This document shows positions 2,933 to 7,501 of a DNA stretch of 64,000 nucleotides, one piece after another. The translations under genes were made by a program, and so were the position numbers. The notes under the pieces are model-generated. The model searched no databases and was not told the origin of the DNA. It saw only the letters and a list, made by a program, of their open reading frames with translations. Each line of letters begins with the position of its first letter. The stretch's first letter is position 1. Origin of the DNA: Polyangium mundeleinium (GTDB lineage: Bacteria; Myxococcota_A; Polyangia; Polyangiales; Polyangiaceae); the NCBI RefSeq assembly GCF_028369105.1, contig NZ_JAQNDO010000001.1:4308501-4372500 (forward strand). Reading direction: 5' to 3'.

Positions 2933-3034
2933 AGCTGGGTCTCTCCGTGGAGGCGTCGCGCCGGGGCGCTGCCCCGGACCCCGCGGGGGCTGTTCGCCCC
3001 TCGACCCGAACCAGGCACGGCCTGGACCGGGGGT

Positions 3035-3063
3035 GGAAGAACTGCGCTCCGCGCAGTTCTTCC
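3035..3063. terminator. Perfect 13-bp stem hairpin
   Basis: GGAAGAACTGCGC at 3035-3047 pairs exactly with GCGCAGTTCTTCC at 3051-3063 around a 3-nt loop. It lies downstream of the HD-domain gene in a 368-bp gene-free stretch (2933-3304) that otherwise holds GC-rich short repeats (ccccgg/ccgggg runs). It could be a terminator or a REP-like dispersed palindrome; no T-tract follows. Confidence 0.6.
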
Positions 3064-3182
3064 AACGGGCCGGTGGCAAGACCATGGAGGTGGGTCTCAA
3101 GCTGGCGACGGGCACGCTGCAAGTTGAACCTGCAGCGCCGCCGTCTTGGTTGGCAGGATCATCTGTGGTCTTGACCCTGGCT

Positions 3183-3217
3183 GTTCGATGAACTGCGCGG
3201 AGCGCAGTTCATCGAAC
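3183..3217. terminator. Perfect 16-bp stem hairpin, sibling of the 3035 element
   Basis: GTTCGATGAACTGCGC at 3183-3198 pairs with GCGCAGTTCATCGAAC at 3202-3217 around GGA. The inner AACTGCGC/GCGCAGTT core is the same as in the hairpin at 3035, so the two are copies of one palindrome family with different outer stems. It sits between two convergent genes, where a bidirectional terminator would be expected. Confidence 0.6.
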
Positions 3218-3304
3218 TTGGGTCCAGCCCCTGGCTGGTCCGGGTCCAGGGGTGGACAACCCCTGGTCGGGGTCCGGGGTGAAACCCCGGCGCCTGCGCT
3301 GCCT

Positions 3305-4003
3305 TCAGAGAATCATCAGCTTCCAGGGCGACGTTGCGGGGTCGTAGCCGAGGGCGAACGTGCGGAGCTTGTAGGCGTCGTAGCGGGTTTTTTCTTCGGA
3401 GACGGCGGTGGTCACGATGCCTGCGGCGGGGGGTTGACCGAGGGCTTGATCGATGGCGGCCACGCGATCGCCGGAGGTCACGATGTCGTCGATGTAGATG
3501 ACGGCTTCGTTGGGCATCGGCCTTCCGATGATGACGAGGTTTTGGGCGAGGTCGTGTGCGGGGTCTTCTTCGTAGCTGAAGCGCGGGCGCATCGCGTCTT
3601 TGTGCACCACGCAGGGACGCACCTTGCCGAAGCCGAGACGTTCGAGTTCGAGGGCGAGGTCGCGGCTTGGCCATCGATCGGTCGCGCGGTTGCCGCGCAC
3701 CACGTTGGCGGCTGGGATGGGCACGAGTGCGATGTTTGGCTTCGTGATGCTGAGGGCTGTGCGCACGTCGCGCTCGTGCACTGCGACGATGTCGGCGACG
3801 TAGGCGTAGGCGCTTGCGGGGGTCTCCAGGCGCATCATGGTTCGGCCTGGGTGGAGGGGGTGCTGGATTGAGCTTGGGATGGGCTCTTTGCGCTGGTTCG
3901 TCACGAGGTAGACGAGCCCGCGCATCGGGTTCGCGTTCAGCCCGGCCAGGGGAGAACCCAGCTTGTAGTACGAGCCGACGGCGTACCCGGGGATCCGCCT
4001 CAA
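3305..4003 (-). CDS. Phosphoribosyltransferase-domain protein
   Basis: The C-terminal half carries VIYIDDIVTSGD, the classic type-I PRTase PRPP-binding motif (two acidic residues followed by VTSG), preceded by a hydrophobic strand. The fold family is therefore clear, but the accepted base or acceptor is not. I chose the TTG at 4003 because GAGGGA lies 7 nt upstream of it; the open frame extends to 4189 but would then overlap the divergent nuclease gene, and an ATG at 3925 is a shorter alternative. With the 4003 start the protein is 232 residues. ComF-like competence proteins and salvage enzymes share this motif; the Cys-rich ComF zinc finger is absent. Confidence 0.65.
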   Translation of the reverse strand: MRRIPGYAVGSYYKLGSPLAGLNANPMRGLVYLVTNQRKEPIPSSIQHPLHPGRTMMRLETPASAYAYVADIVAVHERDVRTALSITKPNIALVPIPAANVVRGNRATDRWPSRDLALELERLGFGKVRPCVVHKDAMRPRFSYEEDPAHDLAQNLVIIGRPMPNEAVIYIDDIVTSGDRVAAIDQALGQPPAAGIVTTAVSEEKTRYDAYKLRTFALGYDPATSPWKLMIL

Positions 4004-4173
4004 GACGTCGTCCCTCGATTCATGCCCACGCGCGACCTTAGCGCGCTCCGTCGCACCTCTGCTACCCCCATGGCGCTGCTGGGGTGCGAGCTTGCGTGGA
4101 CTTCTCCTCTCGACGGCCGGGACGCTCCCTGGGAGCATGATATAGCGTTGCCAGCGAAACGAGGCGCGATCAC

Positions 4174-5145
4174 GTGAGCCGGACTGCATCCAGAAAGCGG
4201 CGCAAGGCAGGTACCCTCGGCGTGTTCGTCGTGGCGCTCTTTGGCGGGCTCGGGGCGCTCTTGCATGCGTGCAAGGCGGACCGTTGGTTCGACGACTTTG
4301 CCTCGCAGGGGTCGGGGGAAGGGAAGACCCGCCCGCGTCCGACGGCGACGCCGGGCCCGTCCGCGGCGCCTGGGCCCAAGGGCAGCCCTGCGCATGGGGG
4401 CGGGGGAAAGCCTGCGGATGCCAGCGTTCACCTCGCGCTTGGCGTCCCGACGGATGACGATCCTTCGGACGATTACGTGATGCGCAAGCCTCAGTACGCG
4501 CTCTCGTACAACGCGGATCAGAACGTTGCGAACTGGGTGAGCTGGCAGATCAACGCGTCCTGGTTCGGCGATGCGCCGCGGCACAAGGGGAAGTTCATGA
4601 CGGATCCGGAGCTGCCTTCGGGCTTCTACCGGGTCACGCACGACGACTACACGGGCTCGGGGTACGACCGGGGGCACATGGTGCGCTCGGAGGAGCGGAC
4701 CCGTTCGCCCGAGGACAACAAAGTCACCTTCCTGATGACGAACATCCTGCCGCAGTACCACGACCTCAACGCCGGGCCTTGGCTCCGGCTGGAGGAGCAC
4801 TGCGAGAACCTCGGCCGCAAGCAGGGCAAGCAGCTCTTCGTCATGGCGGGCGGCGTGCTCAAGCGGGGCAAGAAGGCCTCGAAGACGATCGGCAAGGGCG
4901 TCGCGGTGCCTGACACGTACTTCAAGATCGTCGTTGTGCTCGAGCCGCGCGAGGGGCCTGCGGATGTGACGGAGTCGACCCCGGTGATCGCGGTCCTGAT
5001 GCCGAACAAGGAGGGCATCCAGGACGAGGGCTGGGAGAAGTACCGGACGACCGTGGACGAGATCGAGCGGCGCACCGGGTACGACTTCCTCCCGGCCGTG
5101 GACGAGGACGTCCAGGAAGAGATTGAGGCGAAGAGGGGCGACTAG
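4174..5145 (+). CDS. NucA-like DNA/RNA non-specific endonuclease, lipoprotein
   Basis: 323 residues from a GTG at 4174 with GAGG about 9 nt upstream. A hydrophobic N-terminus ends in the lipobox-like LLHAC (C33), then a Pro/Gly/Lys-rich linker leads to the catalytic domain. YDRGHM (D165-R166-G167-H168) is the beta-beta-alpha-metal DRGH active site of the NUC1/NucA family, and the following TNILPQYHDLN segment supplies the expected metal-binding Asn. It should cleave DNA and RNA at the cell surface or in the periplasm. The convergent downstream gene encodes a NuiA-like inhibitor and overlaps this gene by 4 bp, which supports the NucA assignment. Gly occupies the second position of DRGH as in NucA-type enzymes. 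Confidence 0.85.
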   Translation: MSRTASRKRRKAGTLGVFVVALFGGLGALLHACKADRWFDDFASQGSGEGKTRPRPTATPGPSAAPGPKGSPAHGGGGKPADASVHLALGVPTDDDPSDDYVMRKPQYALSYNADQNVANWVSWQINASWFGDAPRHKGKFMTDPELPSGFYRVTHDDYTGSGYDRGHMVRSEERTRSPEDNKVTFLMTNILPQYHDLNAGPWLRLEEHCENLGRKQGKQLFVMAGGVLKRGKKASKTIGKGVAVPDTYFKIVVVLEPREGPADVTESTPVIAVLMPNKEGIQDEGWEKYRTTVDEIERRTGYDFLPAVDEDVQEEIEAKRGD

Positions 5146-5525
5146 GTCTCCACCAGCTTCGTGGTGACGCCGAGCCACACGCCTGACGGGTGCCGGCCGA
5201 GGACGACGGCGTCGATGTCGACCTTGCCCACGCGGTAGACGCGCAGGTCCGTGAGCTCGCGCTGGAGCAGGTCGACGAGCGCGCGGAAGCGGCCGGACCC
5301 GTCGTCGTCGCCCTCGACCAGGCCCTCGAAGAACGACCCGAGCGACGTCTCTTCGACCGGCGTGTCCGGGGGCAGGCCGCGCGCGTGCAGCACCGCGCCC
5401 GGCGTCGGCTCCTCCTCACCGAAGCGGTAGGCCTCGATCGGGAAGTCCGACTCGCTCGGGAACAGGAGGCCGGCCGCGGCCTCCTCGATGGACTGCATCA
5501 GCGGTTCGACTTCCTGACCCAGCAT
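5142..5525 (-). CDS. NuiA-like nuclease inhibitor
   Basis: 127 residues from the ATG at 5525; the frame stays open further upstream but the conserved region begins just after this ATG. GLLFPSESDFPIE near the N-terminus, a central SFFEGL, and a C-terminal VYRVGKVDIDAVVLG followed by GVTTKLVET match my memory of the Anabaena NuiA inhibitor along its whole length (NuiA is about 135 residues and ends in a TKVVET-like tail). NuiA blocks NucA by inserting its acidic C-terminus into the active site. The gene converges on the NucA-like nuclease and the two TAG stop codons share one CTAG (5142-5145). The encoded protein has no signal peptide, so it presumably protects the cytoplasm before export of the nuclease. 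Confidence 0.8.
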   Translation of the reverse strand: MLGQEVEPLMQSIEEAAAGLLFPSESDFPIEAYRFGEEEPTPGAVLHARGLPPDTPVEETSLGSFFEGLVEGDDDGSGRFRALVDLLQRELTDLRVYRVGKVDIDAVVLGRHPSGVWLGVTTKLVET

Positions 5526-5638
5526 CCTCGGCTCCTCCGTGTCCGGCGCATTCGAGGCGCGCATCCCGGACGTGTCAAGGCGGCGCGCTGCGGGGCCAGA
5601 GATCTTTCCGGCGGCCTGTGCGTCTACGGAGCCACCCC

Positions 5639-7501
5639 ATGCGCCCGCCCCGTCGCTCCTCGGCCGCCTTTGGCCTCTTCGCTGCCTTGCTCGCCGCACC
5701 CGCCGCCGCTGCCGCTGCGCCCGCGCGGAGCTCGGCCGTCGCCCTCGATCGAGGCTCCCTCGTCGCGTACGTCGCCGACGCCGACAACGAGGCGCTCCAC
5801 CGCGTCGATCTCGTGAGCGGCTCGGTCGCCACGACCCCGCTCGGCTGCGCGCCCGCCGAGGTCCTCGTGCTCGCCGAGGATCGGGTCGCCGTGAGCCTGC
5901 GCGGCTGCAACGAGGTCCAGGTCCTCAACCTCGACGCGGCCGGCGAGGGCACGGTCGCCGCGCGCGCGGTCGTCCCGGCCGAACCCTGGGGCCTCGCGCA
6001 GGGCCCGCGCGGCGCGCTGCTCGTCACCTCCGCGTACGGCCGCGCCCTCACCGCGCTCGACGGCGAGTCCCTCGCAGAGCGCTTCTCCTTGCGCCTCCCG
6101 CGCGAGCCGCGCGGCATCACCGTCACGCCCGACGGCCGCCGCGCGTTCGTCACGCATGCCGCGGGTGATGCGCTCTCCGTCGTGGACCTCGACGGCGGCG
6201 AGGCGGGCGAGGCGCCCGTCGTCCGCGCCGTGCGTGCGCTCGGCGGCAGCTACCGGAACCGCGTCGATGCGATGGTCGGAGCGAACACCCTGCACCCGAC
6301 CTCGTCCCTCGCGTACGCCGCCGTGCTGAACGAGAGCGGCACGCGCCTCTTCGTCCCGCACCTCGTCGTGCAGAACGGCGAGAGCACGACCCGTATCGTC
6401 GCGGGCGGTTATGGCGGCGTCGCGATCGAGGAGGACACCTCGGTCCCCACCGTCGCGGTCCTCGACGTCGCGCGCGAGCGCACGCTCGGCGTGGACGGCG
6501 GTGCCCCGCAGAAGAACTTCGTCAACATCTCGGCGAATGCCTTCATGGGGAGCGCCGTCGCGCCCGTGGGCTCTCCCGCGCGGCAGCCGCGCGCCGCGGC
6601 GGTGCTCGGCGACGCGCTCTTCGTCGTCTCGCACGGCACGGGCGAGCTCGTCGAGCTCGACGCGCGCTCGCTGGATCCGGCGCTCGCCCCGCGGCGCGTC
6701 TTCCCCGTCGGCGAGGGCCCTTCCGGCATCGACGTCGATCCGCGCACGGCCATCGCGGTCGTCTGGAACCAGCGCTCGCACGACCTCTCCGTCGTGAGCC
6801 TCGCGTCCGGCGACGTGGACACGTTGCCCGTCGCTGCGGACCCGCTCCGCGAAGACCTTGCGCGTGGCCGGAGCCTCTTCCATGCCGAGGGCGACCGCCG
6901 CATCTCGCGCGACGGCCGCGCCTGCGCGAGCTGCCACCCCGAGGGGCGCGAGGACGGCCTCGTGTGGCGGCTCGGGGACGGCCCCCGACAAACCATGGCG
7001 CTCGCGGGCCGCGTCGAGCGGGGCCCTTACGGCTGGCACGGCATGCACGCGAAGCTCGAGGACAACATCGCCGAGACCCTCACGCGCCTCGGCGGCTCGG
7101 GCTTGCCGGCCGACGACCTCGCGGCTCTCGCGAACTACCTCCGCGAGGGGCTCTTCGTGCCGCGCCGCGAGGGGAAGGACCCCGGCGAGGAGGCGCTCGT
7201 CACGCGCGGGCGGGACCTCTACACGTCGGAAAAACTCGGCTGCAACGGCTGCCACGGGCTCGATCACGGGACGAGTGATCGCGTGGTGCACGACGTCGGC
7301 TCGCGCGCGAAGGACGAGTCACGCGCCGCGTTCCGCACGCCTCCGCTCGCCCTGCTCGAAGGCTCTGCGCCTTACTTCCACGACGGCCGTTACGCGACGC
7401 TCGAAGCCCTGCTCGACGACAACCTCGATCGCATGGGCCAGACGAGCCACCTCACGTCCGAAGACCGCGCCGCCCTGCTCGCCTTCTTGAGGACCCTGTG
7501 A
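5639..7501 (+). CDS. Beta-propeller / diheme c-type cytochrome protein
   Basis: 620 residues from the ATG at 5639; an ATG 21 bp upstream is in frame but precedes the signal peptide. A hydrophobic Ala-rich signal sequence is followed by a long region of YncE/NHL-like propeller strands (SLVAYVADADNEALHRVDL, AVVWNQRSHDLSVVSL). Two heme sites lie in the C-terminal part: CASCH at about 429-433 and CNGCH at about 535-539, with FHDGRYATLEALLD downstream, as in MauG/cytochrome-c-peroxidase-type domains. It is probably a periplasmic redox protein. Its stop overlaps the GTG start of the next gene, making it the first gene of a tightly coupled four-gene operon. Confidence 0.8.
   Translation: MRPPRRSSAAFGLFAALLAAPAAAAAAPARSSAVALDRGSLVAYVADADNEALHRVDLVSGSVATTPLGCAPAEVLVLAEDRVAVSLRGCNEVQVLNLDAAGEGTVAARAVVPAEPWGLAQGPRGALLVTSAYGRALTALDGESLAERFSLRLPREPRGITVTPDGRRAFVTHAAGDALSVVDLDGGEAGEAPVVRAVRALGGSYRNRVDAMVGANTLHPTSSLAYAAVLNESGTRLFVPHLVVQNGESTTRIVAGGYGGVAIEEDTSVPTVAVLDVARERTLGVDGGAPQKNFVNISANAFMGSAVAPVGSPARQPRAAAVLGDALFVVSHGTGELVELDARSLDPALAPRRVFPVGEGPSGIDVDPRTAIAVVWNQRSHDLSVVSLASGDVDTLPVAADPLREDLARGRSLFHAEGDRRISRDGRACASCHPEGREDGLVWRLGDGPRQTMALAGRVERGPYGWHGMHAKLEDNIAETLTRLGGSGLPADDLAALANYLREGLFVPRREGKDPGEEALVTRGRDLYTSEKLGCNGCHGLDHGTSDRVVHDVGSRAKDESRAAFRTPPLALLEGSAPYFHDGRYATLEALLDDNLDRMGQTSHLTSEDRAALLAFLRTL

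What the first reader, a model, noticed from the sequence alone, without database searches (positions are those of the whole stretch)
4174..5525. NucA-like nuclease and NuiA-like inhibitor as a convergent pair sharing stop codons
The DRGH nuclease (4174-5145) and a protein matching NuiA along its length (5142-5525) converge, and both TAG stops use one CTAG. NucA/NuiA are a known enzyme-inhibitor pair in cyanobacteria; a myxobacterial lipoprotein nuclease with its own inhibitor in this tail-to-tail arrangement suggests a self-protected surface nuclease, possibly for predation.
Basis: partly seen in the sequence, partly recalled or inferred. Interest (0 to 1): 0.6.

Follow-up and report, generated by a model that had tools for sequence, protein, structure and literature searches.

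The report
Exported nuclease with convergent inhibitor gene
A soil myxobacterium carries, tail to tail, the gene for an exported DNA/RNA-cutting enzyme and the gene for a small cell-internal protein that should block it, an arrangement already present in cyanobacteria; it is a sound but ordinary example of a known safety pair.

Summary
4174-5145 (+) encodes a NucA-type nuclease (PF01223, E 2.3e-53; Anabaena NucA E 2.6e-59); 5142-5525 (-) a full-length NuiA homologue (PF07924, E 3.4e-30; fold match 2o3b_B, Z 13.3). Both TAG stops share one CTAG. The pair is real: convergent within 760 bp in 6 of 6 held genomes of the genus and 13 of 108 of the family, with unrelated flanks in the other genera tested. 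22 of 25 NuiA-bearing plasmid records, all cyanobacterial, show the same tail-to-tail order, so the layout is not a myxobacterial peculiarity. The 4-bp overlap is dispensable (4 of 6 Polyangium genomes).

'Self-protected surface nuclease for predation' is only partly supported. The inhibitor has no export signal, so it should guard the cytoplasm. The nuclease's +2 lysine is, by Myxococcus rules, an inner-membrane signal. Nothing found points to predation.

Unexpected lead: of 41 NuiA-like proteins read that are not of the pair type (39 from the same phylum), 38 met an export-signal rule (two doubtful) and 40 end exactly in Thr; they look like lipoproteins with the inhibitor domain last, usually without a linked nuclease.

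The parts
4174..5145 (+). NucA-type DNA/RNA non-specific endonuclease with N-terminal export (probable lipoprotein) signal; DRGH catalytic motif; single Cys in the catalytic domain
   Evidence: PF01223 E 2.3e-53; 1zm8_A E 2.6e-59; signal and terminal Cys; one Cys in the domain
5142..5525 (-). NuiA-type cytoplasmic nuclease inhibitor; Glu25 and C-terminal Thr127 equivalent to NuiA Glu24 and Thr135
   Evidence: PF07924 E 3.4e-30; 2o3b_B E 3.5e-15; model vs 2o3b_B Z 13.3, rmsd 3.6, 125 aligned; S24, E25, E126, T127 invariant in 14 rows
5142..5145 (.). CTAG holding both TAG stop codons (4-bp convergent overlap)
   Evidence: sequence; gap -4 in 4 of 6 genomes of the genus; no terminator-like site reported at the junction
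4124..4136 (.). perfect palindrome GCTCCCTGGGAGC upstream of the nuclease start, possible operator
   Evidence: present in window and L062-L065, 5 of 5; one place in the 64-kb window; function unknown
5573..5578 (-). TTGACA-like hexamer upstream of the inhibitor start, hint of its own promoter
   Evidence: TTGACA or TTGACG in 5 of 5 Polyangium loci compared; the consensus scan of 3900-5800 reported no full promoter

Best explanation
This is a NucA/NuiA enzyme-inhibitor pair. The nuclease is made with a Sec/lipoprotein-type signal, exported and anchored on the outer side of the inner membrane or beyond, where it degrades DNA and RNA (nutrient recovery or incoming nucleic acid). Because the catalytic domain has one cysteine and cannot depend on an internal disulphide to become active, any molecule that stays in the cytoplasm would be dangerous. 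The cytoplasmic inhibitor binds such molecules over the active site, with Glu25 and the C-terminal Thr127 reaching the catalytic metal as in NuiA. The two genes are transcribed towards each other, so inhibitor supply does not depend on nuclease transcription. Shown here: homology of both, conserved contact residues, presence and absence of export signals (by a simple rule), conserved convergent linkage. Inferred: binding, inhibition, cellular location, separate promoters, physiological purpose.
For: Family and PDB matches for both proteins; inhibitor model matches 2o3b_B best; one copy of each in the genome, adjacent. Convergent in 16 of 16 family genomes where pair-type NuiA and its nuclease lie on one contig (13 within 760 bp, 3 at 1.3, 1.7 and 4.1 kb); in 2 more they are on different contigs. 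Only the pair, not its flanks, is shared with 6 loci of 5 other genera. Same layout in 22 of 25 plasmid records with NuiA. In the nuclease tree the linked nuclease of each of the 18 genomes with pair-type NuiA falls in one clade (19 rows, G087 twice; SH-aLRT 98). Pair-type NuiA without a credible export signal 26 of 26 against a Cys at the end of a signal-like hydrophobic stretch in 18 of 18 partner nucleases of the family, by eye (9 of 18 by the strict lipobox rule). One Cys in the nuclease domain 18 of 18. Literature: NucA with its signal removed kills Synechocystis from inside and NuiA served as guard (PMC4890671, section 6 read); NuiA is called the intracellular inhibitor (PMC5374557, passages); NucA is secreted by Anabaena and inactivated by NuiA (PMC8924478, passages).
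Against: No binding or activity data. The nuclease structure prediction failed (pLDDT 30), so no complex could be examined. A single Cys is also found in 15 of 34 other nuclease rows (leaving out the duplicate L011), so it does not explain who needs an inhibitor. 13 of 33 PF01223-bearing genomes of the family have no NuiA hit, so such nucleases can be carried without one. Some pair genomes have further nucleases: G088's second (L033) lies outside the clade, and three in G067 and partial hits in G086, G087, G101 and G102 were not read.
Confidence: 0.8

Rival explanations
1. Surface weapon: the nuclease sits on the outside and digests prey or matrix DNA during predation, and the inhibitor gives immunity to kin.
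For: Nuclease carries an export signal; myxobacteria feed on lysed prey (general knowledge).
Against: Inhibitor is not exported; no delivery domain on the nuclease; +2 Lys suggests inner-membrane retention by M. xanthus rules; neighbours are a phosphoribosyltransferase-like gene (judged by eye, no Pfam hit) and a MauG-type cytochrome; same pair in cyanobacteria.
Confidence: 0.1
2. Addiction module: the pair persists because losing the inhibitor exposes the cell to its nuclease, as in plasmid-borne toxin-antitoxin pairs.
For: The cyanobacterial pairs seen are on plasmids, some conjugative; NucA kept inside a cell is lethal (PMC4890671, section 6).
Against: The collection searched holds plasmids only, so location is biased; the genes are convergent rather than an operon; the nuclease has a signal; in the four other Polyangium loci tested the pair sits in a conserved neighbourhood.
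Confidence: 0.12
3. The tail-to-tail order is itself the regulator: read-through transcripts from either gene are antisense to the other, tuning the enzyme/inhibitor ratio.
For: No terminator-like site reported at the junction; convergent order in two phyla; 16 of 16 testable family genomes.
Against: Overlap is not kept: gaps of 4-33 bp in g6/g47, 111 and 759 bp in two Polyangium genomes, 1.3-4.1 kb in three others. The order may simply be inherited from one ancestral cassette: one origin is not rejected for NuiA (AU p 0.54), nor for NucA if Bacteroidota are included (p 0.39), though it is rejected if they are left out (p 0.024) (groups were named after the trees had been seen).
Confidence: 0.2
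4. Two unrelated genes that happen to be neighbours.
For: None found.
Against: Linkage in 13 genomes of three genera with different flanks where tested and in 22 of 25 plasmid records; family-wide, PF01223 is found in 20 of 32 genomes with NuiA against 13 of 76 without (Fisher p 7e-6, not corrected for kinship).
Confidence: 0.01

Closest known systems
NucA/NuiA of Anabaena/Trichormus (PDB 1zm8, 2o3b; PF01223 + PF07924)
   Same: Both protein families over full length, catalytic DRGH, Glu24/Thr135 equivalents, exported nuclease with intracellular inhibitor, and the same convergent gene order (Trichormus plasmid A, stops 8 bp apart).
   Different: On the 13.2-Mb main contig here; 4-bp stop overlap; nuclease has a longer Pro/Gly/Ser-rich linker and an atypical lipobox; inhibitor 30-37% identical to the six cyanobacterial ones aligned.
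Nin with NucA/NucB of Bacillus
   Same: A beta-beta-alpha type nuclease with a dedicated inhibitor gene beside it (PMC5758888, passages).
   Different: That paper finds no meaningful homology of Nin with NuiA, nor of Bacillus NucB with Anabaena NucA.
Serratia nuclease
   Same: Related nuclease (1g8t_A E 7.7e-16; organism name recalled).
   Different: Kept inactive inside the cell because it needs the oxidising outside (PMC8924478, passage; the organism is inferred from the cited Benedik and Strych 1998); here one Cys in the domain.
Exported NuiA-like lipoproteins of Myxococcota (described here)
   Same: PF07924 domain above cut-off; Glu24 equivalent and C-terminal Thr nearly always kept.
   Different: Exported, some multidomain, usually without linked nuclease.

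Membership tests
NucA-type DNA/RNA non-specific endonuclease (PF01223) | Profile match over the catalytic domain above curated cut-off | tested here: met
   181.6 bits vs 23, profile 13-222 of 223
NucA-type DNA/RNA non-specific endonuclease (PF01223) | DRGH catalytic motif | tested here: met
   D165-H168 in all five Polyangium rows
NucA-type DNA/RNA non-specific endonuclease (PF01223) | Export signal | tested here: met
   home-made hydropathy/lipobox rule, with terminal Cys; no SignalP-type program available
NucA-type DNA/RNA non-specific endonuclease (PF01223) | Non-specific DNase/RNase activity | not testable with these tools
   needs protein
NuiA nuclease inhibitor (PF07924) | Profile match above curated cut-off over full length | tested here: met
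   105.4 bits vs 22.1, profile 2-130 of 130
NuiA nuclease inhibitor (PF07924) | Same fold as NuiA | tested here: met
   model pLDDT 74.5; 2o3b_B Z 13.3, next best Z 8.0; the other NuiA entry, 1j57, only Z 4.2
NuiA nuclease inhibitor (PF07924) | Glu24 and C-terminal Thr135 (metal-bridge residues; role recalled from Ghosh et al. 2007, paper not held) | tested here: met
   E25 and T127, invariant in 14 rows; 26 of 26 pair-type NuiA
NuiA nuclease inhibitor (PF07924) | No export signal (intracellular) | tested here: met
   none in the window protein; one frame hit far upstream among 26 pair-type frames
NuiA nuclease inhibitor (PF07924) | Inhibits cognate nuclease | not testable with these tools
   needs protein
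Polymorphic toxin / bacteriocin-immunity pair | Delivery or trafficking domain on the nuclease | tested here: not met
   only PF01223 (and its weak relative PF13930) in Pfam at E up to 0.01
Type II toxin-antitoxin operon | Co-directional operon of antitoxin and toxin | tested here: not met
   genes are convergent
Anti-phage defence system | Match to a catalogued defence protein | tested here: inconclusive
   no PADLOC-DB match for either protein at E up to 0.01; the library holds only described systems

The most novel reading that the evidence does not exclude
NuiA has a second life in Myxococcota. Beside the cytoplasmic inhibitors paired with exported NucA, there is a class of exported lipoproteins that carry a NuiA domain as their last domain, alone or fused to DUF6748, a helix-hairpin-helix-like domain or four DUF1508 repeats. 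Nearly all keep the Glu24 equivalent and end exactly on the metal-reaching Thr. These would be envelope or extracellular inhibitors of other organisms' (or non-NucA) beta-beta-alpha metal nucleases, protecting extracellular DNA or the cell from foreign DNases. One genome (G164) even encodes an exported nuclease followed on the same strand by such an exported inhibitor.
Probability: 0.4. Interest if true: 0.55.

Novelty: new member of a known kind. Interest (0 to 1): 0.32.

Why it matters
The pair extends NucA/NuiA, known to me almost only from Anabaena, to Polyangium and relatives, and shows that convergent order is its usual layout in the two phyla sampled. It gives a clean test of the idea that a disulphide-free exported nuclease needs an intracellular guard. 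The side result, exported NuiA-like lipoproteins that keep the contact residues, points to a possible unstudied class of extracellular nuclease inhibitors in a phylum whose members live in DNA-rich biofilms.

Tried and rejected
Chance adjacency: rejected. Phage origin: no NuiA match at E up to 0.01 in 50,697 phage records and no PHROG for the inhibitor, though the nuclease matches phrog_14168. Structured RNA: no Rfam match at gathering score in the window. Disulphide argument as an explanation of which nucleases have inhibitors: not discriminating. Neighbours of orphan NuiA-like genes: 10 proteins next to 7 orphans searched in Pfam; the 7 with a match are not nucleases, 3 had no match. Co-occurrence of exported NuiA-like proteins with PF01223 nucleases: none in the family once the 18 pair-type genomes are removed (2 of 14 against 13 of 76, p 1.0) and weak in the phylum sample without its 6 pair-type genomes (5 of 36 against 22 of 335, p 0.16). 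Other folds near the inhibitor model (Maf1 Z 8.0, phiKZ Dip Z 7.3) are in the range of common arrangements and were not pursued. A binomial value printed for 22 of 22 is not used, because the plasmid records are related.

Rows dropped and limits: NuiA domains under 60 bits or under 60% of the profile, and identical domains, were left out of the 67 compared. 11 listed NuiA places were never read because of locus caps: G063 and one of four in G067, and nine (G166 second copy, G142, G177, G419, G318, G379, G300, G125, G409). The signal test is a home-made hydropathy/lipobox rule that tries every start in the frame; among the 38 orphan hits L068 and L119 look doubtful, and it gave one spurious hit in 26 pair-type frames. 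For the plasmid records, convergence of 14 of the 22 rests on the coordinates alone; 8 were opened. One of the 22 (NZ_CP046705) has only a partial NuiA match, and the nuclease of NZ_CP026695 is not annotated. One search listed 60 of 242 records. Trees are quick ones with SH-aLRT only.

Full report
What is there. The window lies in a 13.25-Mb genome at C1:4308501-4372500; the four loci found in named genomes are all Polyangium (87-94% identical nucleases), so the host is taken to be a Polyangium or close kin. The 323-aa nuclease (4174-5145, GTG start) matches PF01223 at 181.6 bits and Anabaena NucA at E 2.6e-59. The 127-aa inhibitor (5142-5525, minus strand) matches PF07924 at 105.4 bits over the whole profile and NuiA of the 2o3b complex at E 3.5e-15. 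Both stops use CTAG 5142-5145. The genome shows no second copy of either family at E up to 0.001.

Is it a pair? In the family (108 genomes) 32 have NuiA and 33 have PF01223, 20 have both. Eighteen of the 20 carry the pair-type NuiA. In 13 the genes are convergent with stops -4 to +759 bp apart: 6 of 6 held genomes of the window's genus g1, 6 of 6 of g47, 1 of 1 of g6. In three they are convergent at 1.3, 1.7 and 4.1 kb (G046, G006, G067), and in two they are on different contigs (G042, G043). In 6 loci of 5 other genera only the pair, not the flanking genes, finds a match; in the four other Polyangium loci tested the flanks are conserved as far as the loci reach (G089 was not tested). Both genes show purifying selection.

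The layout is old. Of 25 plasmid records with a NuiA homologue, 22 have a NucA homologue on the opposite strand, convergent, within about 300 bp (eight opened). The three without are a Deinococcus lipoprotein form, an incomplete Pseudanabaena frame and a Nostoc fragment. Several records are close relatives and one of the 22 has a partial NuiA, so this is not 22 independent events. One origin of the pair in Polyangiaceae and cyanobacteria is not rejected for NuiA (AU p 0.54), nor for NucA when the Bacteroidota plasmid nucleases are counted in (p 0.39); it is rejected when they are left out (p 0.024) (the groups were named after the trees had been seen). The simplest reading is one ancestral cassette with loss of the inhibitor in the Hymenobacter/Spirosoma line, but independent pairing is not excluded. 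The nuclease tree places the linked nuclease of each of the 18 pair-type genomes in one clade (19 rows, G087 twice; SH-aLRT 98); a second nuclease of G088 (L033) lies elsewhere, and three more of G067 were not read.

The 4-bp overlap. It occurs in 4 of 6 genomes of the genus. G085 has 111 bp and G087 has 759 bp between the stops, sequence that looks repeat-rich by eye, and both reading frames remain complete. So the overlap is a compact state, not a requirement.

Mechanism. PMC5374557 (passages) infers a hydrogen bond between E24 and D121 across the NucA-NuiA interface; I read its chain labels as swapped, because the Asp of DRGH is the nuclease residue that is Ala in the crystallised chain and residue 24 of NuiA is Glu. 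That the C-terminal Thr135 takes part in a metal bridge is recalled from Ghosh et al. 2007, which is not held. Both residues are present here as Glu25 and the last residue Thr127, and are invariant in 14 aligned pair-type proteins. The AlphaFold2 model of the inhibitor (pLDDT 74.5) finds 2o3b_B first (Foldseek E 4.4e-10; Z 13.3, next 8.0). The reported affinity of the Anabaena complex is pKd 11.49 (PMC5374557). NucA stripped of its signal kills Synechocystis from inside, and NuiA was used as the guard (PMC4890671, section 6 read). The window inhibitor has no signal; the nuclease has one ending in LHA-Cys. All 18 partner nucleases in the family have one Cys in the catalytic domain, so they cannot rely on an internal disulphide in that domain, unlike the Serratia enzyme, which is described as active only in the oxidising outside (PMC8924478, passage; organism inferred from the cited reference). 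I therefore read the inhibitor as a cytoplasmic guard against unexported nuclease.

Where does the nuclease work? In M. xanthus, +2 Lys goes with inner-membrane lipoproteins (8 of 12) and +7 Ala with matrix lipoproteins, although adding +2 Lys did not hold the matrix protein FibA back (PMC3222651, passages). The window protein has +2 Lys and +7 Phe. Relatives vary at +2 (Lys, Arg, Gly, His, Val, Glu and others), and the lipobox is atypical in several (VKC in g47), so even lipidation is not certain. Nothing seen in the immediate neighbours suggests predation.

A second class of NuiA-like proteins. Of 67 distinct NuiA domains compared, 26 are pair-type and 41 others (39 from the same phylum, two from plasmids). 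Pair-type: 26 of 26 end in Glu-Thr; one of 26 frames met the signal rule, far upstream of the start, and is taken as spurious. Others: 38 of 41 met the signal rule (26 with a strict lipobox; L068 and L119 look doubtful), 40 of 41 end in Thr and 32 in Glu-Thr. 38 matched the Glu24 motif pattern, L128 keeps the Glu in a variant motif, L136 is an incomplete frame, and L074 has Gln. L074 has changed both the Glu and the terminal Thr, the one joint loss. As a rough yardstick, 68 of 829 mechanical reading frames over 300 aa in the same loci end in Thr. The domain was last in those read. Among 10 searched in Pfam, four carry DUF6748, one a helix-hairpin-helix match below its cut-off, one four DUF1508 repeats. 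Of ten proteins beside seven such genes, the seven with a Pfam match are not nucleases. Twelve NuiA-bearing genomes of the family have no PF01223 hit; 11 of them were read and are of this class. One phylum genome (G164) has an exported PF01223 nuclease and, about 78 nt downstream on the same strand, a lipoprotein NuiA. I found no paper on exported NuiA-like proteins in four searches of the open-licence library, listings only; subscription journals are mostly not held.

Verdict. As a finding it is a new member of a known kind with a layout already present in cyanobacteria. The predation reading is not supported. The exported class is the more interesting lead.

Noticed in passing
L021, L023-L031, L066-L088, L119, L120, L128, L131, L132, L137 (NuiA-like domains at the 3' ends): A class of mostly exported NuiA-domain lipoproteins in the phylum (and one on a Deinococcus plasmid), nearly all ending exactly in Thr, mostly without a linked nuclease.
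   Followed up: partly
L107:811-3552 (minus strand; same place as L081): Exported PF01223 nuclease followed about 78 nt downstream on the same strand by an exported lipoprotein NuiA, the only such tandem seen.
   Followed up: partly
L074:1495-2715 (-): The one NuiA-like protein in which the Glu24 equivalent (Gln) and the C-terminal Thr (Arg) are both changed.
   Followed up: no
window 4124-4136: Palindrome GCTCCCTGGGAGC just upstream of the nuclease start and in front of the divergent gene, kept in 5 of 5 Polyangium loci; possible operator for either gene.
   Followed up: partly
L065:1963-2721; L062:5973-6083: Inserts of 759 and 111 bp between the two stops in two Polyangium genomes; the first contains inverted repeats that look like those at window 3030-3220.
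   Followed up: no
L138:2468-3599, L139:2441-3860: Hymenobacter and Spirosoma plasmids carry NucA-type nucleases nested with the cyanobacterial ones but no NuiA in the stretch opened; a small gene without a Pfam match above cut-off follows on the same strand in each.
   Followed up: partly
L128:5863-7128 (-): Four DUF1508 repeats fused to a NuiA-like domain in an exported protein.
   Followed up: no
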